From contig WHVA01000237.1 of the NCBI GenBank assembly GCA_015179125.1, forward strand, positions 62,001 to 126,000: a DNA stretch of 64,000 nucleotides, in the 5' to 3' direction. Shown here one piece after another: positions 821 through 60,746 of the stretch. The stretch is from Gautieria morchelliformis (Eukaryota; Basidiomycota; Agaricomycetes; Gomphales; Gomphaceae). Below the pieces are notes generated by a model that worked only from the letters and a program-made list of their open reading frames with translations, searched no databases and was not told the DNA's origin. How positions within the stretch are numbered: the stretch's first letter is position 1; each line of letters starts with the position of its first letter. The position numbers and the translations under genes were made by a program.

Positions 821-1517
821 TGTTACGTATCGAGATTTCCACTAAGTCGGAACTGGAAAGGACAGTGGCTTCAACTTATAGGTTGCGCCCCCGATGAACT
901 ATCGTCCTAAGTATTTCGGAACTGAGTCGGAAGTCGGAAAGTACTGAACCAAAGGTTTGGTCGGAACTTGGGTCGGAACTGAGGCGGAAGGTGGAAGGCG
1001 GAAGACGGAAAGCGGAGAGACTGAGATCTTACTAGACTCGCTGTGCTAAGAACAGGAGATGGAGCGAAGGAAATCAAGTATCGAAGGCGATTATCTGATT
1101 GCAGAATAAGAGACATACATGACAGGCTTTTATACAAAGAGCTGAGACAACAGGTAATGACATAGTACTAAGCAAATTCCGGGGGAAGCGGAAGTCGAGT
1201 AGACAATGCGTGGGAACTAACTATTGGGAACAATGGGACTACAAGGGGGGTTCAGGGTACGGTAGAACAATGGCAAAGAACAAGGGGTCGGGAAAACATA
1301 TCTGACAACGAATTACAAGGGTGACCGGATATGTGGTTTTGATGAACGATGAAACGGGTCCGGTGGGTCCAAGTAATAGAGTCGAAAGAACAAGGGAATA
1401 GAACAATGGGCGGAATGTCGGAAATATCGGAGGGGCGGAATGTGTTGTGGAAATATCGGAGGGGCAGAAGGTGTGGCGGAACTGAGGGTCGGAAGTCGGA
1501 AATGAACGGTCGTAACA
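821..1517 (-). repeat. 3' LTR of family-1 chromovirus
   Basis: Near-identical to 8537-9233. The left flank is GTGAT (816-820). The element side (1518-1531) reads on the minus strand as a purine-rich tract (AGAAGGGAGA) just before the LTR, a plausible polypurine tract. On the minus strand the LTR has TATAAAAG near 1128-1135. The pentamer CGGAA occurs roughly 18 times in 697 bp. Confidence 0.95.
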
Positions 1518-1640
1518 GTATCTCCCTTCTAAGGTCAAGCCCCGCGAGACCACAGGTTGGATCATGTGACCTGTGAACAAACGCGTCGGAGTTCTAAAAA
1601 ATTAGGCTGAGGAACAAACGCGTCTTCTGTCCATTCCATC

Positions 1641-2226
1641 ATGAGTGCTCCAGTAGACTTCTCTAAAATGTCCAGCGCCGAGATGAAACAGCATTTCGCT
1701 GATATGCTCGCGCAAAAGGAATTGGCCGAAAAACGCGAGGCTGAGGAAGCTGCGTGGAAAGAGAAGGAACGTCGGGAGAAAGAGCGGAAGGAGCAGGAGA
1801 GGAGGGAACGTGAACGCCAGGGGCGGGTTAGCACAGGTGGAACTAACCCACACCAAGCGCCCGTTTGGGATAACGCGAAGGGAGAGCCTCTGGTTCGAAT
1901 CCCCCCCCTCCACATTTGTAGCAGTAATTACTACAATGTTTCGCCCCACTGATAGGTGTTGACAAATGTTAGGATTACGAGGCTCCTGGACTTCCATACG
2001 GCATATAAGACCTACTGAAACTGACCGGTACTGTTATGTATCTAAGGTGATTAGGCATTGTAAACAAACAGGAAGTATCCTACGTTGGTGCCAGCATATC
2101 TCTGGCTTACTTCGGTAACTACAATACCCTAGCATGTAAAACACTTTGATTACTCTATTCCGCGTTCTGGGTAGAGACTGCCTATATAGGGCACGGCCCC
2201 AAGGTGGCAGTATAATAAACGGAATT

Positions 2227-2258
<32 letters not shown>

Positions 2259-2934
2259 GTGAACACCGCGAGGAGGAGGAACACGTCCGTGAAGAGAAAC
2301 GGAAATGGAATGTGGCACAGAAAGCTGCTGCAGACAAAGCTGCTGCAGAGAAGGCGGCTGCGGAGAAAGTTGCTGCGAAGAGGGCGGAAAAGGAACAGGT
2401 GAGTCGGGAATGTCCGGCGGAAAAAGTTCTTGAATCAACTAAAAGTTCTTCCAGAATAATGTTCAGGACGAGTCAGACTCAGACTCAGAAAGTTCGGCGG
2501 AAAGTACACCGTCTCCCAAAGGAAAAGGGAAGCAAAAGGAAATCGCTACTCCAGTGAACCTTGTGGCAGAACGGAAACGTCGGGCGGACGCATTCCAGAA
2601 GGCTCGGAAGGAGAAGTTGAATCGGATGTTGGAGCTGCGTGAACTAGGGCCGGAAAATCCTGCAACTAAGAAGCGGAAAACGCGGGACGGCGATGAGGAG
2701 GAAAAAGCTCCTTGCGACCCATGCGAGTCTAAGGGGGCGGATTGCACATGGTCGAGTAATCCATGGGAAATGTCGTGCAATCAGTGCCATGACAGGAAGA
2801 GACGCTGCGTTGTGGACGGGTGCGCTTCAAGGCTGGAGCGAAAGAAACAGAAGGTTGAGGAGTCGAATCCGAAGTCGGAACCGGGACCGAGTGGAGGGAG
2901 GGCCGAGGAATCGTTTCCGGTGACCGGAAAATAG
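1641..2934 (+). pseudogene. Antisense spliced ORF of the chromovirus (Lys/Glu-rich, Cys-rich), split by a SINE
   Basis: Reads opposite to gag-pol in the region between integrase and the 3' LTR. It starts MSAPVDFSKMSSAEMKQHF and runs into a long charged helix (Glu/Lys/Arg) interrupted by the SINE at 1819-2257. The helix resumes in frame after the duplicated target (Arg/Glu, then Ala/Lys-rich). A GTGAGT...CCAG intron fits 2398-2454. The second exon has an acidic Ser/Asp patch, a basic segment and a cluster CDPCESKGADC...CNQCHDRKRRC resembling a Zn2Cys6 DNA-binding motif, ending at 2934. Function unknown; a regulator or nucleic-acid-binding protein is a guess. The extra ORF is probably part of the family, because it occupies the whole pol-LTR gap and keeps coding character. 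Confidence 0.6.
1819..2257 (+). repeat. tRNA-derived SINE with poly(A) tail
   Basis: Box A-like TAGCACAGGTGG lies at 1829-1840 and a perfect box B GGTTCGAATCC at 1892-1902, the internal RNA polymerase III promoter of a tRNA head. A body of about 320 bp follows, with an A-run of about 30 at 2228-2257. Flanks carry a target duplication ACGTGAAC(G/A)CC at 1808-1818 and 2257-2267. It is inserted in the chromovirus antisense ORF, so it is younger than that element. Being non-coding, it would depend on a LINE for mobility. Confidence 0.85.
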
Positions 2935-2946
2935 GGACAGGCGGTT

Positions 2947-3342
2947 TTGAACCGATTCACCATGTCTTATCCCCTTCTCGATATTGCCGGGTCACTGAGG
3001 GCCATGCGGAAACAGCAACGTGAAATCCGGGATATCATGATCGAAATGGCCGAGGTTCAGCAGCATCAGGTTCTGTCAATTCAGAACCAGATGACTGTTA
3101 TGTCTACCATCCTGCAGCAGTTGACGCGGGAAATGCGGTGGCGGAACGATCTGGTCTGGGACCGAATGGATGCGCGGCTGCGGGAGCAGGGAATTGGGGC
3201 GGAAGCGGGTCCGAGCGGGGGGGCGAAAACAAGGGAAAGGGTGGAAACGGAGTTGGTGAGCGTCGAGGTAGGAGAGGCGGAAAGAGCCGGAAGCGGAAGA
3301 AGAGGTCGAGGCGGAGACAATGAGGGAGGAGTAGGGGTCTAA
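2947..3342 (+). other. Possible further exon/ORF of the antisense gene
   Basis: An open frame of 131 codons with a helical N-terminal half (repeated Gln/Met/Glu, coiled-coil-like) and a Gly/Arg/Glu-rich tail that ends at 3342, before the integrase 3' end. It lies 13 bp after the stop of the upstream antisense ORF. I could not find an intron that joins the two in phase. It may be a separate ORF, a downstream exon, or chance coding from the CGGAA-rich repeats. Confidence 0.35.
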
Positions 3343-3464
3343 GAGACTTGTAATATAATTTCTTGAAGTGTCGGAAATAAGCGTATCGGAATAATAGTCG
3401 GATTTTAATAATGACTTGAGAACTGTAAGAAAGCAATGGGTGTCGGAAACGAGGTCGGAAATGA

Positions 3465-6400
3465 CTAGGGCGCGGAAATGGGGCCAGGCTTATCAGGATA
3501 AGACTTGTGAAAATCAGAGACGAGGTCAGAGGCGTGATCGAGTTCCGTGGCGGAAATCCACGAGGTCTCTTCATTGGTGTTTTCATAGCCTGCCCACTTG
3601 ACTAGGTACTGGAGTTGGCAGCGGTATCGTCTGTCGAGTTTGGAGTTGAGAATTTCCGAGATCTCATATTCCGGTTCTCTGTCAATGACGACTGGCGGAG
3701 GCGGAGGTTGTTCTCGATTTGGAATTGTATTCGGAACTGCGGGCTCAAGCATGGAGACATGGAATACCGGGTGTACTGCGCGCATATTGTCAGGAAGTCT
3801 GAGAGTGAAAGAACGACTGCCGGCCTTAGCGATGATCTCGTAAGGGCCAAGGTATTTCTCAGAGAGCTTCTTCGAGGGACGAGTAGTGCAGAAGTTTTCC
3901 GCTTTGACAAAGACTTTGTCGCCAATCTCAAATGCCGGTTGCGGATGTTGTTTCCAATCGGTGGAGGTTTGGTATCTCTTTTGTGCAGCGGTAATGTTCT
4001 CTCGGAGGTGCTGGTGAAGGTCGTCAAGTTCCACAACGAAATCTCGGGCTCTTGCAGAGGCGAGGTCGCGTTCAGGGTGGATGGCGAGATTCGGGTGGTA
4101 GCCCTTGTTGGCGTAAAAGGGTGAAATTCCGGTGGTAGTGGAAGGCGCATTGTTGTAGGCAAATTCCGTGAGTGGAAGAAGGTCGGACCAATTGCTGTGT
4201 TGGTAGTTGCAATAGACACGGAGATACTGCTCAAGGGTCTGATTAGTACGTTCTGTTTGTCTGTCTCCTTCGGGATGATAACCGGAAGTGAAGTGGAGCT
4301 TCATGTCGAGAGCCTTGCCGAGTGTGCGGAAAAAGGATGACACGAATTCGGAACCACGGTCGGAAGTGACATGGGAAGAGATTCCGTGCTTGGAAAAGAC
4401 ATGGAGCACGAAGAGTTGTGCGAGTTGGGCGGAGGTGATGGTGTCGTAGGTCGGAATAAAGATGGACTGCTTTGTGAGGCGGTCAACAATCACTAGAATG
4501 GTATCATAGCCAGATGACTTAGGAAGTTTCTCAATGAAATCCATGGATATCGAATTCCACGGTTGTTCCAGGATCGGAAGTTGCTTCAGGAGGCTGTATG
4601 GTTTGTGACGTTGAGGCTTGGCTCGCATACAGGTGGTGCATGACTTGCAGTAGTCTCGGACCATCGTGCGGAGAAGAGGCCAAGTATAGGTACGTCGGAT
4701 TATGTCGAGGGTTTTGTTCTGGCCTTGGTGTCCTGAGAGCGGATGATCGTGGCTTTGCTGGAGTACGCGAAGTCATAGATCATTGGTATCCGGAACGTAA
4801 ATCCGGGACTTGTACCGGAGAAATCCGTCGGAATCGAGGGACCATCCAGGACTGGTGGGGTCATCGAGGTGGGTTGCGGAGATGGGGTCAGAACGGAGTG
4901 CGGAACGGATGTCGGAATGGAGAGACTCGGTGTCCATAATGATTGAGGCGTGGAGTAGCGGAAACTGCAATGCTGTGGCATGCAGGGACGATGCCAGTTG
5001 CTCAGTGGAGAATACTGGGCAGAAATTGTGTGGGTTAACGCTGGCATAGTCGCTACTTCCCTCTTTTGGGTAGACGTCCCAACGTCTAGTGAGTGCGTTG
5101 GGTTTTGCTCCGAGCTTTCCGGGGCAGAAGCGGATCACCATGTTGAACTGTGAGAGATATTCAGACCAGCGGACTTGACGGCGGGTCAAGATCTTAGTAG
5201 TCGCGAAATACTCAAGGTTCATATGATCCGTTACAACGTCGATCGGATAAGTTGGACCTTCGAGGTAGTGTCTCCAGATTTTGAAGGCTTCGAAAATCAC
5301 AAGTAGTTCCTTATTGTGGACGTCGTAGTTGAGTTCCGGGGCGGAAAAGGTGCGGGAATGAAAGGCGATCGGATGAATTTCTCCGTCGTCGGGGGAAATG
5401 ATGGAAAGAATGGCGGCTAGCGCATAGTCGGAAGCGTCGGTTTCGAGTACAAGTTGGGCATCAGGAATCCAGAAACCGAGTATAGGAGCCATAGTGAAGG
5501 CCGATTTGAGGGCTTCAAATGCGGAACGGCATTCCGGAGTGAAATTCCATGGGGCACCCTTCCTGGTGAGACGCGTGAGCGGAACAGTAATGTCGGAAAA
5601 ATTATAAATGAAATGCCGGTAAAAGTTGGCGAAGCCAAGGAAAGACTGTACATCCTTAACACGTCGGGGTTCCGGCCATTCTTGAATTGCCTTGACTTTG
5701 TCCTCTGCCATGGTAAGACCTGTTGGAGAGAGGATGTAGCCGAGGTATTCGACCGTGTCGCAATGCCATTCACATTTCTCTGCTTTTGCGTAGAGATGGT
5801 GTTTGCGTAGACGGTGGAGTACTTCGTGGACATGTTCCCGATGTTTTTCCAGTGTGTCGGAATAGATGAGGATGTCGTCAATGTAGACTAGAACGCATAC
5901 GTCGAGGAGGTTGGAAAATACGTCGTTCATGAATCGCTGAAAAGCGGCGGGAGCATTGGTTAGACCAAAAGGCATGACAACCCACTCAAAAGCACTGTAG
6001 CGGGTGCGGAAAGTGGTTTTCCACTCGTCACCTTCCCGGATGCGGACAAGGTGATAAGCGTGCCGGAGGTCAATTTTGGTGTAGATCTTCGCCCTGCGGG
6101 GAGTGTCGAGTAGGTCGGAAATGCGCGGAAGCGGATATTTGTCCTTCTTAGTAAGGGCATTGAGTCCGCGGAAATCGACGCAGAGGCGGAGAGATCCATC
6201 CTTCTTGTTGACGAAAAGGACCGGAGCGCCGTGCGGAGACAGCGAAGGGCGGATAAAGCCCATGTTGAGATGTTCATCGACGAACTCTCGGAGAGTTTGG
6301 AGTTCACTTTGCGAAAGAGAGTAGATTGGTCCAAGGGGCGGAGATGCTCCTTCTTCCAAATCTATCTTCAGATCGTAAGGTCGGTGTTCAGCAGGTTTAT

Positions 6401-7064
6401 AGGCTTTGGCCTTATTGAACACGTCCGGGAAGTCACGATATTCTTCCGGAACTGAGCTCATGTCAACCGGAGCGGAAGTCGAGGCGGAACGAGCCTTGAC
6501 TGAAGCCGAATTGGAAAGGTGAAGCTGGAAAACGGTCGTATCCTCTTGCCGTTGCAATACGCGGAAAGCGGTGGTGGAGACGAGCGCAATTCGAGGAGCT
6601 TCGAGGGTCGGAGGTGCTAAAGCGGGACCGGAGTGCAGAACTGAATCCACGAGCGGAGTTGCAGAAGAGGCCTGAGCCATCTTTGCAGATGATGTCGGAA
6701 TAGACGGAAGTTGATCCGGGGTACGGAACTGTATTTGACCCAATGCCCAGTTAATTGACGGATTATATCAGGTGAGCCAATTGTGTCCTAGTACAACGGA
6801 ACAGCTAGCATCTAGCGGAGTAACGTAAAACGTAACTTCATGGTTGTCCCCAGTAGCGAAACGGATAGACAGATCCACGACTTGGGAAATTGCCATGTTG
6901 GAAGATCCGTCGAAAAGGCGGAGCAGAATTGTCGGAAGTGAGCGGAACAGAGAGGGAGTCGGAGGACGAAAGAGCGGATGCGTTGAGTTTAACCTCATTT
7001 GTCGCATGAATGGGGTCAACACAGCCCTCAGCTCGTACGGAGGCCGGAGGACTGCTGACTATTT
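3465..7064 (-). pseudogene. pol of family-1 chromovirus: protease remnant, RT, RNase H, integrase, chromodomain
   Basis: The protease part (about 6780-7060) lacks its D-S/T-G core: compared with the family-4 copy at 21700-22180, sequence is missing near 6930 and the frame changes. RT follows, with the active site VYIDDILIYSD around 5860-5890. RNase H follows, then the integrase HHCC finger (about 4600-4760), the DDE core with SMDFIEKLP, SDRGSEF and GDRQTERTN, and a chromodomain near 3490-3700 (YLVKWAGYE). In-frame TGA codons at 6768-6770 and 4773-4775 both sit where the family has Arg, so they look like CGA-to-TGA changes. By family knowledge the protein reverse-transcribes and integrates the element, and the chromodomain steers integration to modified chromatin. 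Confidence 0.93.
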
Positions 7065-7068
7065 TTTT
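7059..7068 (-). promoter_or_regulatory. Gag-pol -1 ribosomal frameshift site (A AAA AAA UAG)
   Basis: On the minus strand gag ends ...TCA AAA AAA TAG. Seven A (7062-7068) abut the stop (7059-7061). Slipping back one base gives ATA GTC AGC..., the frame that contains the start of the pol polyprotein (IVSSPPAS). The same arrangement and the same downstream residues (IVSGPPAS) recur in the diverged family-4 copy at 22626-22635. Inference; no translation data. Confidence 0.6.
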
Positions 7069-8503
7069 GAATCCGCAGCGGGAGCCGCTTCGGATTTCTC
7101 TTCCGTCTTTGCTGCGCGGCCCTTGGCCTTAGCAGCGGAGGCGGAAGTGCGAGTGCAGTCGCGAGCGACGTGACCGCCTTTGACGCAGAAAAGGCAAAGG
7201 TTGTTGTCCATGCGACGCTGACGTTCTACAGGGGTTAGTTTTCCGTCCTTCCCAAGTTTGTCAGAAATGTCCGGAGTGCTCTTCCGGGCGTTGGCGTTGG
7301 AACCAGAGGCCTGGTTGTTGCGAGGGGTGGAGTTGTTGTTCCGGTTGCCGGAGTTGGATCCGGAACTGTTGTTGTTGTTGTTGTTTCCGGAGTTGTTGTT
7401 TCCGGAATTGGTCTTCTTCTTGTCTTTATCAGACTTCTTGTCGGAAGACTTGTTGTTCTTGCTCTGGGTGGAGGTTTCGCAAGCGACCTCAGAATGTCTT
7501 TCCCAGTAGCGCGAATCGATGGATTGGGCGAGGTTGCGGAGGTCGGTAAGGGTGGCGGGTTTTCCGACGCAGGCAATTTCATACTTGATGCGGGATGGCA
7601 AGCCCATGTAAAACTGGCGTCAGAGTGCGGCTTCTCCCCATTGGACTCGAGGAGCGAGCTGCTGGAACATGACAATATATTTAGCTATCTTATGAGTGTC
7701 TTTCGTTCGAAGCTTATCGAGTTCATTTTCCACATCGGCTTCCATATCAAATGGTCCGAAGTTGCTGCGGAGTTCGGAAACGAAATTGTGGTAATCGTCG
7801 GCCCAGTCGATGAGAGCGAACGGATCCATGAGGGCGGGTTCGAAGTAGTCGAGAGCCGTGCCTCGGAGATAGGAAAGGGCATAATTGACCTTTCGTTCGT
7901 CGTCGGGAAAGGCGTCGGGACGATCACGGAAATTGAGTTGAAGCTGGACCAGAAATGGCTGGAGCTTCTTGGGGTCGGAACCGTCGAACTGATCTGGTTG
8001 GCGGACCTTTGTCTTAGGGCGTGGTGGTGCTTGGGCTGGGTGCTGAAGTTGTCTGGCTAGCATGGCGATGGCTTGTGCAAGATCCGGAACTGGTGCGGGC
8101 GGAACTGGGTTGGTGGGAATCTGAGGTGGAATTGGAGGTGGGGAATCTGAGGTGGAATTGGAGGTGGAGGACCGCCTGGGGGACCGCCGGGTGGGCCGCC
8201 ATGAGGGCCGTCTGGAGGGCCGCCTGGAGGGGGTCCTGGTGGAGGAGGTGGTGGTGGAGCTGGGCGTCGGAATGATGCTGCTGTTTGTTCGCCGCTGCTA
8301 CTCGTCGAATTCCCATCATAGTCGGGATTGTCGTCGGGAACTTCTTCGAATCGTTGTGGAAAAGCATCGGAGAGCTCATCGTCAGCACGAGAGCTGCCGG
8401 AGGGTTCCGCGTGCCTTGGTGCTGCGGATCTAAGACTGCCAAAATAAGAGAGAGCTTCGACAGCTCCTGCTCAAGCTGAAGTAGCTGTGGTACGAGGAGG
8501 CAT
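7059..8503 (-). pseudogene. gag of family-1 chromovirus
   Basis: It starts at ATG 8501-8503 (MPPRTTATSA) just inside the 5' LTR. A stop TGA at 8471-8473 replaces an Arg codon present in the paralogue at about 20300. A Gly/Pro-rich linker (8020-8280) is frameshifted. The capsid core follows (7620-8063; DQFDGSDPKKLQPFL and the family signature ALDYFEP), with a TGA at 7620-7622 where Arg is expected. Then come an Asn/Ser/Lys-rich stretch and a CCHC knuckle (CLFCVKGGHVARDC) near 7150-7210. Gag ends on the slippery A7-UAG site. Its product would form the virus-like particle. Confidence 0.88.
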
Positions 8504-8523
8504 AGTGATAGTTATCGGGTGGG

Positions 8524-8534
8524 AATCAGATAAT
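8524..8534 (-). promoter_or_regulatory. Self-complementary primer-binding site
   Basis: On the minus strand the LTR end is followed, after two bases, by ATTATCTGATT. This is the exact reverse complement of AATCAGATAAT inside the same LTR (8806-8816), about 34 nt downstream of the first T of TATAAAAG (8843-8850), where the transcript should begin. No match to the usual initiator-Met tRNA 3' end was seen. The arrangement is that of Tf1/sushi elements, whose mRNA 5' end folds back to prime reverse transcription. Confidence 0.65.
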
Positions 8535-8536
8535 AC

Positions 8537-9233
8537 TGTTACGTATCGAGATTTCCACTAAGTCGGAACTGGAAAGGACAGCGGCTTCAACTTATAGGTT
8601 GCGCCCCCGATGAACTATCGTCCTAAGTATTTCGGAACTGAGTCGGAAGTCGGAAAGTACTGAACCAAAGGTTTGGTCGGAACTTGGGTCGGAACTGAGG
8701 CGGAAGGCGGAAGGCGGAAGACGGAAAGCGGAGAGACTGAGATCTTACTAGACTCGCTGTGCTAAGAACAGGAGATGGAGCGAAGGAAATCAAGTATCGA
8801 AGGCGATTATCTGATTGCAGAATAAGAGACATACATGACAAGCTTTTATACAAAGAGCTGAGACAACAGGTAATGACATAGTACTAAGCAAATTCTGGGG
8901 GAAGTGGAAGTCGAGTAGACAATGCATGGGAACTAACTATTGGGAACAATGGGACTACAAGGGGGGTTCAGGGTACGGTAGAACAATGGCAAAGAACAAG
9001 GGGTCGGGAAAACATATCTGACAACAAATTACAAGGGTGACCGGATATGTGGTTTTGATGAACGATGAAACGGGTCCGGTGGGTCCGAGTAATAGAGTCG
9101 AAAGAACAAGGGAATAGAACAATGGGCGGAATGTCGGAAATATCGGAGGGGCGGAATGTGTTGCGGAAATATCGGAGGGGCGGAAGGTGTGGCGGAACTG
9201 AGGGTCGGAAGTCAGAAATGAACGGTCGTAATA
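8537..9233 (-). repeat. 5' LTR of family-1 chromovirus
   Basis: 697 bp, ending ...CGTAATA (a transition from CGTAACA) before the right-hand target duplication GTGAT at 9234-9238. Read on the minus strand it holds TATAAAAG at 8850-8843 and the presumed transcript start near 8816, so it is the promoter LTR for gag-pol. Confidence 0.95.
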
Positions 9234-9238
9234 GTGAT

Positions 9239-9955
9239 CCCCAACCCAACGACACTCCGGACAACGGAGATGCGCCCGCTGAAGAGTGGGACCCCAAGCC
9301 GTCCCAATACTATGAATGGGATGAGGAGGTGGAAGACACCACCTGCAGGTCCAGCGCGATCAGATTCGCGCTGGAGGACGAAACCGCCACGAAGGTCATG
9401 GCGGCACGCACAGCAGTCACACCAGACAAGGCGGCCGAGCCGGTATATCGCCACCGAAGCAAACACAGGATGCGGCCAACACACCCGCGCAGTGAGAACC
9501 GTACCCTATCGGGGTACTGGGAAATAAATGGCGTAAAAGCCCACTGCCTGCTAGATAGTGGCAGCGAAGGGGTACTGCTATCCCCCGAATTCACGCGAGC
9601 TACAGGGATGAAGACATTCTCCCTGGAGCAGCCAATCGCACTGCAGCTAGCCTGCATAGGCAGCCATTCCACAATCAACTATGGAATGAACACGACCATC
9701 AAATTTGGTCGTGAGACATACGACGAATATTTCGATGTAGCGAACGTCGAATATTACAACGCTATCTTAGGGACACCGTTCCTAAGGAGATTTGGCATAA
9801 CCCTGGACTTCTCGAGCCCAGGGACAATCTGCAAGGGGAACGAAGTGATCCCCACGGGCAAGCTCTCGTTCGACGACGACGGATCGACGAACAAGGACAA
9901 GGGGCCACGGGTGAGCAGGATCACCTGGGCACCAAAGCCTAACCTGGCTCTTTGA
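9239..9955 (+). pseudogene. Gag-linked aspartic protease of family-2 gypsy
   Basis: In frame with the gag ORF that was cut at 820. The protease has the active-site motif HCLLDSGSEGVLLS (about 9540-9580) and the second conserved block AILGTPFLRRFGI (about 9760-9800). By family knowledge it cleaves the Gag-Pol polyprotein. The ORF ends at TGA 9953-9955, and the same frame stays open on the far side into RT. A perfect 12-bp hairpin begins six bases after the stop. The TGA may be a readthrough signal or a decayed CGA. Confidence 0.85.
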
Positions 9956-9961
9956 AGCCAG

Positions 9962-9990
9962 GAGGATGAGTCGCGGGACGACTCATCCTC
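9962..9990 (+). promoter_or_regulatory. Hairpin downstream of the gag-pro stop codon
   Basis: Arms GAGGATGAGTCG (9962-9973) and CGACTCATCCTC (9979-9990) pair perfectly (12 bp) around a five-base loop, starting six bases after TGA 9953-9955. Upstream and downstream frames are the same and open, the geometry expected of a stop-codon readthrough or pausing element. It may also reflect coding constraint; untested. Confidence 0.45.
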
Positions 9991-10033
9991 GAACTCACCC
10001 TACAACCGTAGGGAGAGGCGCTCTCACCTAACG

Positions 10034-11931
10034 GTGAAAGCGATGGGGAAGAGGAAAGCGGTTCCGCGCACTGCGGGACCTAATAAACGCCAACAGCGCC
10101 TAATGGCTTCTAAGCCAACCACCACCATCATCCTCACGGATGATGACCTTCCTCGCCTCCACGAGGAATGGAGGGAACAAATCACTGACTTAGTCAGTGG
10201 AATTCCATTAGAACTCCCGCCACTACAGGAGATCAACCATGAGATCAACCTCATTGATCCCAGCAAGCACATGCGGTATCAACTACCAAAATGCCCCGAA
10301 CACTTCCGAGAGGAACTGTCAGCTAAGATAGAACGATACACCACTGCAAAGTGGTGGATTCTGGCAGTCGCGCAGCAGGCCGTGCCCATGCTGTGTGGGC
10401 CGAAGAAGAATGGTACATTGCGAACCATCTTCGATCTGCGCCAGCAGAACGAGAACATGGTGAAGGACATCACGCCCTTCCCGGATCAGGATATCATCCG
10501 CAGCGACATGGCTCGCTGTCGGTATCGAACAAAACTCGATATGTCAGAAGCATATGAGCAGATCCGGATCCATCTGGATCACGTAGCAAAGACTGCCTTT
10601 GCCACGATCCTTGGCACCTTCAGGAGCCAGGTGATACAGATGGGGGACTGTAACGCCCCATCAACATTCCAACGGCTGATCACAGCCATTTTCTGTGACT
10701 GCATAGGTCGCTTCGTCTGAGGAAGAATCACCTTTTTCTGAGCAAGAAAAAGGTGGACCTCTATTCCATCCAAATGGAGTGTCTTGGCCATATCATCGAT
10801 GGCCGAGGGGTACATGCCGACGAGGACAAGATGCAATGCATCTGCGAGTGGCGTAGGCCACGGACGTTCAACGACATCCAGCGTTTCCTCGGGCTGGTAC
10901 AGTATCTGGCACACTACATGCCAGATGTTAGCACATATACCACCCCACTATCGGGATCTGCGTGTAATAACCGTCCATTCGAATGGACTCCACCACTAGA
11001 CAAATGCTGGCAAAGCATTAAGGTGTTGGCCTGTAAGGCCCCGATCCTGCGTCCAGTAGACGCACGGTGCCCAGAGCCAATCTGGGTGATCACCGATGGG
11101 TTGAAAGCCGGCGTCGGTGCGGTCTACGGCCAAGGTCCTGACTGGAAAACCTCTCGACCTGCCGGCTTCTTGTCAAAGAAGTTCAGCATTGCTCAGCAAC
11201 ACTACCGGACTCACGAGCACGAGACGATTGCGGTGCTCGAGGCTCTCATGAAATGGGAGGACAAACTGCTGGGGCGAAGGTTCACCCTCGTCACAGACCA
11301 CAAAGGGCTCGAGTACTTCGAGACCCAGAAGAGCCTATCTGACCACCAGGTCAGATGGTGGGAGTTTCTCTCCCGGTTCAATTTCAACACCGTTCATGTT
11401 GACGGTGTAGAGAACAAGGTAGCGGACTGCCTGTCGCGCTACTATGAGAACGACACGAGTGATGACAATCACCTGGACCACGTCTTTGTGAATGCAGATG
11501 CGCGTTTAGACCCGGACGGTGAGTTATTGTCCACCGACCGGTATATCGAGCTGCGAACAGTGGCAACAAGATGCTCTAAACGCCTCGCTGAGAAGACAGA
11601 GGTGAGAGTAACGGAATCCGCCGCATTAAACGAGGGCTCACCAGAGCCTGCGAATGTCGCCGCGTCACGTGACGACGATGACGATGACGTCAGAGTCATC
11701 GCCGCAGGGAATGACGGCGTGCCCCTGCGCCAGGTCATCGAGCAAGGTGTAGACCTGTCTAAGGTCCTACGAGACGCGTACCACAGGGACACCATGTTCA
11801 CAAAGATCATGGCGCACCTGGACGCGCACCCGATATTTGGGATCCAGGATGGGCTGATTTGGACTAAGAACCAGCTCAAAAGAGACGTCATTGCCATCCC
11901 CTGCTCGGTTCTTCAAGGGGAAGGAAGCTGA
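10034..11931 (+). pseudogene. Reverse transcriptase and RNase H of family-2 gypsy, RT active site deleted
   Basis: RT fingers/palm are recognisable (LRTIFDLRQQNENMV, YRTKLDMSEAYEQIRI, GDCNAPSTFQRL). At about 10716-10722 the frame hits TGA and the sequence jumps from GRFV to LRKNHLFLSKKKVD, so the segment that should carry the catalytic YxDD box is missing and the frame is shifted. The thumb and RNase H follow (CLGHIIDGRG, WVITDGLKAGVGAV, FTLVTDHKGLEYFE). The ORF continues to 11931 into a linker with an acidic Asp run. The deletion alone makes the enzyme inactive. Confidence 0.9.
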
Positions 11932-20303: not shown

Positions 20304-20499
20304 ATAGTTATTGGGTGGGTATCAGATAATACTGTTACGTATCGAGATTTCCACAAGTCGGAACTGGAAAGGACAATGGCTTCAACTTATATGTTGCACC
20401 CCCAATAAACTATCATCCTAAGTATTTCGGAACACAGGTCGGAAGTCGGAAAGTATTGAACTAGAGATAAGTCAGAACTTGAGTCGGAACTTGAGTCGG

Positions 20500-20569: not shown

Positions 20570-20963
20570 AAGGCGGAGAGTCAGAGGTCTTGCTAAACTC
20601 GCTGTGCTAAGAACAGGAGATGGAGCGAAGGAAATCAAGTATCGAAGGCGATTATCTGATTGAAGAATAACAGACATACATGAGAGGCTTTTATACAAAG
20701 AGCCGAGACAACATGTAATGAGGTAGTACTAGGCAAATTCCAGAGAGAGCGGAAGTCGGATAGACATATGGGGTAATTGGCTAATTGGGAACAAGGGGAC
20801 TACAAGGGGGGTGCAGGGTAAGGTAAAACAATGGCAAAAGAACAAGGGGTTGGAAACCATATCTGACAATGAAACTACAAGGAGGACCGGATATAAGGTC
20901 TTGCTGGGCTGGGAGGCGAGTCCAGTGTGTCCAAGTAATAGAATCAAAAGAACAAGGGAATAG

Positions 20964-23870: not shown

Positions 23871-23982
23871 GGACACTCGAAGCACCTTGTGCACACCAAG
23901 CTTTGATTGTCAGTGTTACATGGCTGCCTTCGGCATGGTTGTATGAACAGGTGATTGGCATTCTGAACAACTGAGTGCAGGA

Positions 23983-23992
23983 GTTCAGATAT
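23983..23992 (-). promoter_or_regulatory. Self-complementary primer-binding site, family 4
   Basis: The minus strand after the LTR reads GT ATATCTGAAC TCC. Its reverse complement GTTCAGATAT occurs in the sense LTR (plus-strand ATATCTGAAC at 24193-24202), about 36 nt downstream of the sense TATATAAA (plus-strand 24231-24238). Same geometry as family 1 but a different sequence. Confidence 0.6.
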
Positions 23993-23994
23993 AC

Positions 23995-24430
23995 TGTTAA
24001 GGCTATGTGTCGTACTGAGGTTCAGCTCTAAACCAGAGCCAAACCAGGATTTTGGAACAGAGGGCTTGGCTTCAACCTTGTAGGTTGTACCCACTCAGTG
24101 CTCCGCCCTAATTTCAGGAACATGTTTGGCTATAAGCCAAGGATCAGGAACACTATCAGGCAGGAGAGCTTAGTGTATGAGGAGCTAAGTTGATATCTGA
24201 ACTGAGGAACTAGGATACAATATTGAGGGGTTTATATAGTAAAGTAGTATGCAGGGTCAGGGGGATCAATGACCAGAACTAGCGGACAAGGGGAACAAAG
24301 GGTTGAACATACAGGGAACTAACTAAGAAGGGGAATCAGGGGTGATGGAAAGGTACAAAGAAAACCCGAAGTTCCTGAGCGAGTACTGAAGCCGAGGCTT
24401 CGGGACCGAACTCGGGAATGGATCGTAACA
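23995..24430 (-). repeat. 5' LTR of family-4 gypsy
   Basis: 436 bp, TGTTAAGGCTATG ... GGATCGTAACA. The sense strand carries a TATATAAA box and the presumed start site described for the primer-binding site. Only one LTR of this element is present. Confidence 0.82.
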
Positions 24431-50715: not shown

Positions 50716-51452
50716 CAGAATCAGCAGTTTTTTTTTTTTTTTTATAATCCAATTTATTGTCTTTTGGGGCAATGCCCTATGTAAGACAAGGTATACATAT
50801 CGCCGGTCACGAATTATTTCTATCTGCCCTATATTTCTCGGTCTCTACTTGCGCTCTTGGGCGAAGCCCGGAGCCTGTCCGTGCCTGTGTGGGCGGGGAA
50901 AAATCTTCTTTGCTTCGCTGTTGTGCTCCCTGACCCCCTCTCAGTTGCCGTCCCCGCCTGCCTCTCCCCGTAGGGTTAGATCGCCGTACGCTTCTTCGAA
51001 CCTTCTCGTGGCCTGGATGTACCTGAACAACGGCTTCATCGCCTTGGGTCTGACCAGCAAAACCTTCGTCGAACTTGCCCCTCTGCGTAGCTCTTGGTTC
51101 AACTCTGCCCTCTGTTTCGCGTAACTCGGGCATCTGAACAGGTAATGGTGTACCGTTTCATCGGCTCTCTTGCACGCGGGGCATCTGGGTGACGGCGCCT
51201 TGCCGATTTTTGCTAGGTGTTTGTTCAGCGCTACATGCCCTGTCCTGAGCTGTACTAGCAGCGTCGCGTGCTTGCGCGGCATCCTTTCTGTGAGTCTGGC
51301 AAAAGCTGCGGAAGGTAGTGAGGGGTCTGTTTTGTGTGCGATGGCTGCGCGCGGGGACTTAGCAAACATTGCCTTCGCTTGTCCTCTGAGCTCCTTCTGG
51401 TATCTCTGCAGCTCCGCCGCTTTGCTCGCCGGCATTCGCCAGAATCAGCAGT
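50716..51452 (-). mobile_element. 5'-truncated LINE with target duplication
   Basis: An insertion of about 0.71 kb (50728-51439) flanked by CAGAATCAGCAG at 50716-50727 and 51440-51451. Minus-strand 3' end with an A-run of about 18 (T-run 50728-50745) preceded by a non-coding tail. It retains only the last part of ORF2. Truncation at the 5' end is typical of target-primed reverse transcription. Located 130 bp after the PEX7 stop. Confidence 0.88.
50941..51435 (-). pseudogene. LINE ORF2 C-terminal domain (zinc-finger tail)
   Basis: 164 codons open to the truncation point. It contains LLVQLRTGHVALNKHLAKIG and CPACKRADETVHHYLFRCP, the C-x2-C...H...C motif that ends the ORF2 of Tad1/L1-like fungal elements. 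RT and endonuclease are abs ent through truncation. Confidence 0.8.
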
Positions 51453-58489: not shown

Positions 58490-60746
58490 TCAGAGGGTCG
58501 ACAGTTTTTCCAAAGACTCCGGGTTCGTCGTCAAAGCACCACCTGGAGGAAGGTGTTCAGATTGACCTTCACCGTGATCCAGGTTTGGCGTCAGCACTGG
58601 TGGTGAAGACATGGCCTCCTCCCGCGGTGACCGACGTCCAGATCTGAGCAGTTGTTGCTGCCATCGCTCGGCCTTACGTAGTTTTCCAAGAGCATCCAGG
58701 TCGCCTTTAGCTTTAAGCTCGCGCGTGACCCATGCTTGTATGAGGCGTGCGGCTTCGAGGGGTCCAGCAGTCTTGTGCTGAATGAGATAACCTTGCAGTT
58801 CTGCCATGCTGAACGCGCCCGGTGGTATGGCCGATGAGAATTCATCCGCCAGTCGCAAGGTTTGTGACTCTTTAGTGACAGGAGACTCCTCAGTCGTGCT
58901 GCTCACAGTCGGAAACATAAATTCCGGGAAGAATCTCAGGAATAACCCTTCAGCCTGCTGTCGAGTAGCAAACCGATACTCGATTCTGACATCAATTCTA
59001 CCTGGCCTTATGAGAGCAGGATCGAGGCGGTCAATGTGATTGGTCTGTGACAAATAAGTTCGCATCATAAGCTGAACGCCAGGACAGAGAAACATACGGT
59101 TGCAAAGAATATCTTGCCCTCCTCTTAAGTAGATCCCGTTGTTAGACTTATTCTCAGCAATACGAATGTCATTTACCTGAACCAATCCCATCCAACATAT
59201 TCAATATACCGGACATTGTGACTTGCGAAGTCCGCGGCTTGTTTGGAAGGTGCCAGGGTTTGGCTCTAAATTCGTCTCCATCCCAGTCACTCCTGGACGG
59301 GAAGGCACAGTCAATGTCTTCGAGCACCAAGATTGCCCGCGTAGGGAGAAATGAAACTGCCCTAGCTAGGCGAGTGTCGTCCATTCTATAAATAGATAAC
59401 TTCAGCACGAGGGGACTATGCATCCCAGAAGGAACTACGCGCGATTTTGATGACAGAGACAGGACAAAAAGCTCCAACCCCAATTCTCCAGCCTGCACAT
59501 TAGTCTGCTCAGCCTCATCAGTTATTAAAGTTCATAAGAAGAGCTCTATACCACGGTGTATATAGTTGAAGCTTGATAAGTGAGCCGGGGGTAAACGTTG
59601 GGGGAGAAACAACTGCTCACTTTTTCCTGTTCCGGGAGGCCCATGAAGCAAATAACCTCGGCGATGCGGAATGCCTGCCTTGGTATACCTTCAGTGGATA
59701 TAAACTGACTGTTCTATTATCCCGCCGCCATTTACATACCAAGTTTTTGCGCTAAGGAATTCCCGTGCATCGTCTAGAAGAGAAGTAATGGTGTTTTTGT
59801 CCAGCAGGAGCGAGTCCAACGGTCTCCGACGCATCATGTTGACATGGCTCCATCCGGAACGGCTCATAAGATCAGATCCCTGGAACTCCATTTAAAATGA
59901 CACCCAAGTGCGTCGGCCGGCCGCGTGCCACGTCACGTAATAAACTCAGTACGTACTGTGTAAACAGCAACTTCAGATTTACTGTAAGAATGTTAGATAA
60001 AGGTGAACGGGGAGACTTGTCTACCACTCACGTATCCTCAGCATACTTCAGACGGCATTCCTCCACAAATGCGTACAGGACAGACACGTCCAGCGTGAAG
60101 ATGCTATAAAGGCATCAGGATGACTTGACGAGACGATATGTTCGGACGCATGACTTACGTCAAAGAAATAAACCACCCTCGGCTGTCAGCACGATCCTGT
60201 ATGTATCTCATAGTAGGATCAACCTGGGTCTTGAGTCTGCTGACTTCCAACCAATATCCTCTCCAACGAAAGAACTGGACAGACCCATACTCTGGGATAA
60301 AATCTACTTGGTCGTTCTCGGTGCCAGTCTGAAGTTTCCATTTCCTCTTGTTGCTCTTCATTCTGACCCACATATTGCGCGGTGTGCTCCATATGTTCTC
60401 TTTGACCTGAGGCACCAGCCCGCATCAACCTTTCTCGTCATAATACAACTATGATGAGAGGGCGCGCACCAAGTAATTGACAAGCCACTCTTGGCAAATG
60501 TCTCCAGCACCGAATTGAGCGGAAATGGACCAGCCTGTGTTATAACGTGGTATGTGTTCGTTGCATCCTCGAGACAAGCAACCTACGAAGTTTAAACCTG
60601 TCGATGAGCCAATAGAATATCTTGCGTGTGGTTTCAAGGACAGATCCCAGTACAAGAAGCTTGAGACCATCCCAGAGAATAGGGGTCAGCACCGAGACGG
60701 TGAGGCCACCCATAAGAGCAGCGACATCAATAGACCATGGCAGCAT
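58490..60746 (-). CDS. BCS1-like AAA ATPase, paralogue A
   Basis: Twelve exons: 60587-60746, 60470-60534, 60406-60159, 60032-60103, 59957-59981, 59740-59885, 59621-59688, 59552-59571, 59443-59492, 59177-59385, 59098-59123, 58490-59044, 547 aa. The N-terminus has the BCS1 membrane/import-type segment and domain ([35 protein letters not shown]). The AAA domain has Walker A HGPPGTGK-TST, split by an intron and completed by a 20-nt exon, Walker B ILVLEDIDCAF, sensor [17 protein letters not shown], and C-terminal AAA helices. BCS1 proper inserts the Rieske protein into complex III; fungi carry many BCS1-like relatives of unknown role. Intron 9 (59386-59442) needs a GC-AG donor. Intact. Confidence 0.88.

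What the first reader, a model, noticed from the sequence alone, without database searches (positions are those of the whole stretch)
8524..8850. Two gypsy lineages keep self-complementary primer-binding sites with different sequences
In family 1 the sequence next to the 5' LTR (ATTATCTGATT, 8524-8534) is the exact complement of AATCAGATAAT within the LTR, 34 nt from the TATA box, where transcription should start. In family 4 the pair differs (ATATCTGAAC with GTTCAGATAT; 23983-23992 and 24193-24202) yet sits in the same positions. Paired change in a diverged relative argues for function. Known Tf1/sushi elements prime reverse transcription this way instead of with a tRNA. Seen: the pairings and positions. 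Inferred: use as primer.
Basis: partly seen in the sequence, partly recalled or inferred. Interest (0 to 1): 0.75.

Follow-up and report, generated by a model that had tools for sequence, protein, structure and literature searches.

The report
Self-priming retrotransposons in a fungal genome
Several families of jumping genes in this fungus appear to start copying themselves with the first 10-11 letters of their own RNA instead of a borrowed tRNA, as yeast Tf1 does; the mechanism is already known, and here two sister families show primer and binding site changed together.

Summary
Confirmed. Both pairs are at the stated places; family 4's is 11 nt like family 1's, and both primer blocks lie 34-35 nt below a TATA box. 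Genome-wide the exact paired patterns occur at 328 and 59 places (reversed-pattern controls 0). Two further families, found through protein domains and not through the site, show the same layout with other letters: AGACTTTTCT (665 places) and AGAGTTTTCT (53). These two are homologous and differ by one swapped base pair, C:G against G:C. Family 1 and the 665-place family share 41.5% pol identity, so the layout outlasts its letters. In families 1 and 4, sequences on both sides of the binding site can pair with the LTR, as in the Tf1 'pretzel' RNA; covariation is fair in family 1, weak in family 4. No example site shows TGG.

Best reading: Tf1/sushi-type self-priming, known in kind. Transcript start, primer cleavage and priming are inferred. 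Paired change need not be two lucky mutations: copying the primer into the new site would produce it. Against: computed folds do not favour the primer pairing in family 1, the flanking helices were not found in the other two families, and tRNAs were not scanned.

The parts
821..9233 (-). Family 1 LTR retrotransposon, gag-pol with chromodomain; coding region in several stop-to-stop frames
   Evidence: LTRs 98.4% identical over 695 nt, 5-bp duplication GTGAT at 816-820 and 9234-9238; frames; Pfam gag, RVT_1, RNaseH, H2C2, SH3_Tf2-1, Chromo, and rve just under its cut-off
8537..9233 (-). 5' LTR of family 1, 697 nt
821..1517 (-). 3' LTR of family 1; primer block copy at 1090-1100
8844..8850 (-). 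TATAAAA, 34 nt before the primer block
8806..8816 (-). AATCAGATAAT, presumed first 11 nt of the transcript and self-primer
   Evidence: start site inferred
8535..8536 (-). 2-nt spacer GT between LTR end and PBS
8524..8534 (-). ATTATCTGATT, primer-binding site
8785..8791 (-). GATTTCC downstream of the primer block, can pair with 8550-8556
8550..8556 (-). GGAAATC near the U5 end, upstream of the PBS
8606..8619 (-). U5 GATAGTTcATCGGG, can pair with the leader 8507-8519
8507..8519 (-). Leader CCCGATAACTATC just downstream of the PBS
20321..20330 (-). PBS of a second family-1-like copy; 10 nt pair with 20651-20660, the primer's first base (20661) is mismatched
24193..24203 (-). Family 4 primer block AGTTCAGATAT, 35 nt after TATATAAA (24231-24238)
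23982..23992 (-). Family 4 PBS ATATCTGAACT, 2 nt (GT) after the presumed LTR end at 23995
   Evidence: the LTR end is taken by likeness to family 1 (...AACA), no LTR pair was examined

Best explanation
These are chromodomain Ty3/gypsy elements that prime reverse transcription with the 5' end of their own mRNA. Transcription starts at the A of the block 33-35 nt after the TATA element (inferred). The first 10-11 nt fold back onto the PBS, 2 nt beyond U5; in families 1 and 4 two flanking duplexes may help (complementarity shown, compensatory changes fair in family 1). RNase H is then expected to cut after the primer and RT to extend it (inferred from Tf1). Plus-strand DNA later copies the primer, so the next PBS is templated by the primer block; this would keep the two ends complementary while the letters drift (inferred).
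For: Four families with different primer letters, a 2-nt spacer (LTR pairs seen for family 1 and F5; by likeness for family 4 and F6), TATA-like distance 33-35 and an initial A after a pyrimidine in the examples. Exact paired patterns at 328, 59, 665 and 53 places, reversed-pattern controls all 0. Cross-family complements of the PBS at most 8 nt against 10-11 within family. Homologous families F5 and F6 differ by C:G to G:C; the mismatched combination F5 primer with F6 PBS at 5 places, control 0. F6 came from gag hits, not from the PBS: in 16 of 20 loci both blocks were located, 11 of 16 pair 10/10 and 5 of 16 pair 9/10. Flanking helices in family 1: 95.9% of cells paired, 33-52% when slid, 0 of 500 shuffles reach the covariation score or the number of cells changed on both sides. 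No TGG. Chromodomain and SH3_Tf2-1.
Against: Computed pairing probability of primer with PBS is 0 in family 1 and 0.01 in its second copy, where the primer pairs locally; at most 0.42 in family 4; 0 and 0.08 in two of four F6 copies; about 0.65-1 in two F5 copies and 0.6-0.98 in the other two F6 copies. The family 1 and 4 alignments were chosen for perfect primer pairs, so that helix is not independent. The flanking helices were picked by position from 15 and 10 conserved helices of 6 bp or more. In family 1 the number of pairs changed on both sides is reached in 51 of 500 shuffles; in family 4 the cells changed on both sides in 145 and the pairs in 487 of 500. No such flanking helices seen in F5 and F6. 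Some copies depart from the promoter spacing: in L084 the TATA lies 24 nt off, L093 lacks it. The TATA elements of F5 and F6 are only TATA-like (TATAAT, TATAG). The fourth cell of the F5/F6 table did not complete. No transcript data; no tRNA scan. Some chromoviruses lack any such complement (SM-Tcn1, Skipper: PMC2864245, PMC5006619, passages).
Confidence: 0.88

Rival explanations
1. The PBS is used by a host tRNA (3' end or an internal cut) and the match to the LTR is incidental or serves another end.
For: Most LTR elements use tRNAs; half-tRNA priming exists and would lack TGG (PMC6317226, passages). The genome's tRNAs were not scanned here.
Against: No TGG in the first 15 nt after the LTR in one example of each of four families; four families have four different sites; the LTR partner changes with the PBS.
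Confidence: 0.04
2. The inverted pair is an RNA structure for packaging, dimerisation or translation and not a primer.
For: The 5' ends of LTR element RNAs are structured (my knowledge); in two F5 copies the pair is formed in the computed fold.
Against: It starts at the presumed first transcript base and ends 2 nt from the LTR end in four families; a structural helix need not sit at either place.
Confidence: 0.05
3. Shared ancestry and chance: related LTRs inherited a match without function.
For: Families 1 and 4 share the core TCAGATA; F5 and F6 are sisters.
Against: Pol identity of family 1 and F5 is 41.5% with unlike primer letters; the F5/F6 base pair changed on both sides; 92 of 100 listed family-1 junctions keep the PBS intact though the search left it free.
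Confidence: 0.03

Closest known systems
Tf1 and Tf2 of Schizosaccharomyces pombe (Tf1/sushi chromoviruses)
   Same: First 11 bases of the Tf1 RNA complementary to the PBS, chromodomain, three-duplex 5' RNA (PMC7175516, PMC10085805, passages seen)
   Different: Host differs and sequences were not compared; priming is demonstrated for Tf1, only inferred here
Tj1 of S. japonicus, Tosmo and Tcry elements
   Same: Self-complementary PBS; pretzel potential reported (PMC4600332, PMC10085805, passages seen)
   Different: Other fungi; sequences not compared here
Tcn1 of Cryptococcus neoformans
   Same: Basidiomycete gypsy element proposed to self-prime (PMC7175516, passage seen)
   Different: Sequence not compared here
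Lyophyllum shimeji proteins named tf2 155 kDa protein type 1-like
   Same: Among the 120 listed rows, up to 78% identity to the F5 pol region
   Different: Only proteins seen; their LTRs and PBS were not available

Membership tests
Tf1/sushi group | Ty3/gypsy pol order with C-terminal integrase chromodomain | tested here: met
   Family 1; F5. Not tested for family 4 and F6
Tf1/sushi group | PBS complementary to the mRNA 5' end | tested here: inconclusive
   Complementarity to an LTR block 33-35 nt after a TATA-like element met in four families; that the block is the mRNA end is inferred
Tf1/sushi group | Pretzel: two further duplexes beside the PBS | tested here: inconclusive
   Family 1 fairly supported, family 4 weakly, not found in F5/F6
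Tf1/sushi group | RT phylogeny inside the group | not tested
   No named reference set was at hand; F5 pol matches two frog proteins at 47-50%, in line with a fungi/vertebrate clade
Tf1/sushi group | RNase H cleavage that frees the primer | not testable with these tools
   Needs RNA
tRNA-primed Ty3/gypsy | PBS starts with TGG and matches a tRNA 3' end | tested here: not met
   No TGG in the first 15 nt after the LTR, one example of each of four families; tRNA genes not scanned

The most novel reading that the evidence does not exclude
The primer and its site evolve in concert because self-priming copies the primer into the PBS of each new element. Families living in one genome thereby drift to distinct, mutually non-matching primer sequences, which could keep their RNAs from priming each other.
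Probability: 0.3. Interest if true: 0.6.

Novelty: new member of a known kind. Interest (0 to 1): 0.42.

Why it matters
It extends self-priming to several abundant families of one fungal genome and supplies a natural base-pair swap between sister families, the kind of evidence usually made by mutation. It also makes a simple question testable by sequence alone: whether a self-primed element repairs its own PBS from its primer.

Tried and rejected
Counting inverted pairs alone: 11-nt pairs occur by chance several times per 64 kb, so position and copies were needed. Nested folds as proof: rejected, since primer pairing is absent from the computed family 1 ensemble. Within-family covariation of the PBS in family 1: the site hardly varies (of 100 listed rows 92 intact, 7 with one change, 1 unrelated), so the comparison had to be between families. 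LTR pairs were found in 6 of 10 stretches; 5 of 6 showed the F5 pair; in L047 the detected repeat seems to stop short of the LTR end, so I do not count it as a test. A survey of two 200-kb stretches was not possible. Naming the host from the elements and a neighbouring gene piece gave best named relatives in several mushroom-forming fungi, no species. Rfam at gathering scores and a tRNA scan of the window: nothing.

Full report
The window is part of a 122-Mb genome in 1113 contigs. The best named relatives of its element proteins and of a BCS1-like gene piece are in mushroom-forming fungi, so the host is probably an agaricomycete; no name is given.

What was claimed is there. Family 1 is an element on the minus strand, 821-9233, with 697-nt LTRs that are 98.4% identical over 695 aligned nt and a 5-bp target duplication GTGAT. 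Its frames give gag, reverse transcriptase, RNase H and integrase pieces with the Tf2-type SH3 domain and a chromodomain (the rve match is just under its cut-off). The PBS at 8524-8534 is the exact complement of the LTR block at 8806-8816, 34 nt below TATAAAA. In family 1 the PBS begins 2 nt (GT) after the LTR end ...AACA. In family 4 the same letters AACA-GT precede the PBS, but no LTR pair was examined there, so its LTR end is taken by likeness. In the window eight blocks, with up to two mismatches allowed, lie 33-35 nt after a TATA box.

Copies. The word AATCAGATAAT occurs 1437 times forward and 1487 reverse in the genome, 23 and 20 for the reversed control. The paired pattern occurs at 328 places and the family 4 pair at 59, controls 0. 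The junction of 25 nt with up to three mismatches matches 465 times, control 0. When flanks were fixed and the 11 PBS positions left free, 400 junctions matched, control 4; of the 100 listed, 92 had the intact PBS, 7 one change, 1 was unrelated.

Other families, found without choosing on the PBS. Integrase SH3 hits (150 scored of 3407 candidates) led to F5: of ten fetched stretches six showed an LTR pair and five of these the pair AGACTTTTCT with AGAAAAGTCT, 2 nt after ...TTACA. With a gap of 115-145 it occurs at 665 places, control 0. Gag hits (150 scored of 2048) led to F6: I fetched 20 of the first 23 rows; both blocks were located in 16 of 20, by a search that allowed 9 and 13 mismatches but whose template held the blocks; 11 of 16 pair 10/10 and 5 of 16 pair 9/10. 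In L053 only the junction was found, in L049, L063 and L066 neither. The exact F6 pair with a gap of 115-145 occurs at 53 places, control 0; copies with a shorter gap are not in that count. The LTR end of F6 is taken from its likeness to F5.

Same layout, different letters. In one example of each family the blocks lie 34, 35, 33 and 33 nt after a TATA or TATA-like element (TATAAA, TATATA, TATAAT, TATAG) in families 1, 4, F5 and F6, each begins with A after a pyrimidine, and the longest primer-end-anchored complement is 11, 11, 10 and 10 nt in the own LTR but at most 8 in another family's; shuffled LTRs reach this in 1, 1, 4 and 3 of 5000 trials (for families 4 and F6 about 500 nt upstream of the presumed LTR end were used). 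Among the 22 and 21 sequences printed most keep the promoter spacing, but L084 has only 24 nt and L093 lacks the TATA. Family 1 and F5 share 41.5% over 597 aligned pol positions.

Paired change. F5 and F6 can be aligned through R and U5 (alignment in parts gappy). Their primers differ at one base, C against G, and their sites differ at the partner, G against C. Matched combinations: 665 and 53 places; F5 primer with F6 site: 5 places, control 0; the fourth combination was asked six times and not answered. This is a cleaner case than families 1 and 4, which differ at several places.

Flanking duplexes. The Tf1 RNA is said to need, besides primer:PBS, two duplexes between sequences beside the PBS and the LTR (PMC10085805, passages seen). 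In family 1, GATTTCC after the primer can pair with GGAAATC at the U5 end, and GATAGTTcATCGGG in U5 with CCCGATAACTATC after the PBS. In 22 sequences (two from the window, 20 picked by eye for divergence among the listed part of 328 places, and all with perfect primer pairs except one window copy) 95.9% of cells of these two helices pair, against 33-52% when slid; four cells change on both sides, at two pairs; 0 of 500 shuffles reach the covariation score or the four cells, 51 of 500 reach the two pairs. In family 4 (21 sequences, 20 picked from the listed part of 59 places) the corresponding helices pair in 93.0% of cells against 23-45%; the score is reached by 6 of 500 shuffles, the cells changed on both sides by 145 and the pairs by 487 of 500; the window row is misaligned by one base in the leader. 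These helices were chosen afterwards from 15 and 10 conserved helices of at least 6 bp, so their position, not their length, is the argument. In F5 and F6 I found no such flanking pair. The duplex after the PBS crosses the primer helix, which ordinary folding cannot show; the computed primer pairing is 0 and 0.01 in two family 1 copies, at most 0.42 in family 4, 0.65-1 in two F5 copies, and at most 0.98, 0.82, 0.08 and 0 in four F6 copies.

Not a tRNA site as far as tested: no TGG in the first 15 nt after the LTR in one example of each family. The tRNA genes of the genome were not scanned, so half-tRNA priming is disfavoured, not excluded.

Mechanism. Shown: complementarity, positions, copy numbers, one compensatory pair between sister families, possible flanking pairing in families 1 and 4. 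Inferred from TATA distance: transcript start. Inferred from Tf1 (passages of PMC7175516): RNase H cut after the primer and extension. Inferred from the general scheme of LTR reverse transcription (my knowledge): plus-strand synthesis copies the primer, so the new PBS is written from the primer block. That makes paired change a consequence of self-priming, needing no two independent mutations kept by selection. It also predicts which side leads when a young copy is mismatched. The few mismatches seen in F6 (four with a changed PBS, one with a changed primer) do not test this, since the copies were not dated; taken at face value they lean the other way from nothing more than five cases.

Known or new. 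Self-priming is described for Tf1, Tj1, Tosmo/Tcry and plant Tcn1-clade elements and proposed for Cryptococcus Tcn1 (passages of PMC7175516, PMC4600332, PMC10085805, PMC6317226). For SM-Tcn1 and Dictyostelium Skipper no such site was found (passages of PMC2864245 and PMC5006619). Two of the original papers were looked up and not held. In my searches (listings and passages only) I saw no report of a natural compensatory swap between primer and PBS of sister families, but the library lacks most subscription papers. I therefore call these new members of a known kind.

Noticed in passing
window 9062-11931 (+): Another gypsy pol remnant (aspartyl protease, RT, RNase H) lies directly beside the family 1 element, whose right LTR ends at 9233 within the reading frame 9062-9955, as if nested.
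   Followed up: partly
L050, L061, L062: F6 copies lacking one unit of a tandem duplication (CTTTGGATCCCCCTTCGCCA) between primer and PBS, which shortens the distance from about 132 to 76 nt; the pair is 10/10 in two and 9/10 in L050.
   Followed up: partly
P0243, P0282: F5 pol is 47-50% identical to predicted frog proteins (Ascaphus, Dendrobates), in line with a fungi-vertebrate chromovirus clade.
   Followed up: no
window 50941-51435 (-) and 58490-59191 (-): A zf-RVT piece and a BCS1-like AAA lid piece.
   Followed up: partly
window 8785-8816: In family 1 the primer's first six bases can also pair with a nearby LTR stretch (AATCAG with CTTGATT), a local hairpin that competes with the PBS in the computed fold.
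   Followed up: partly
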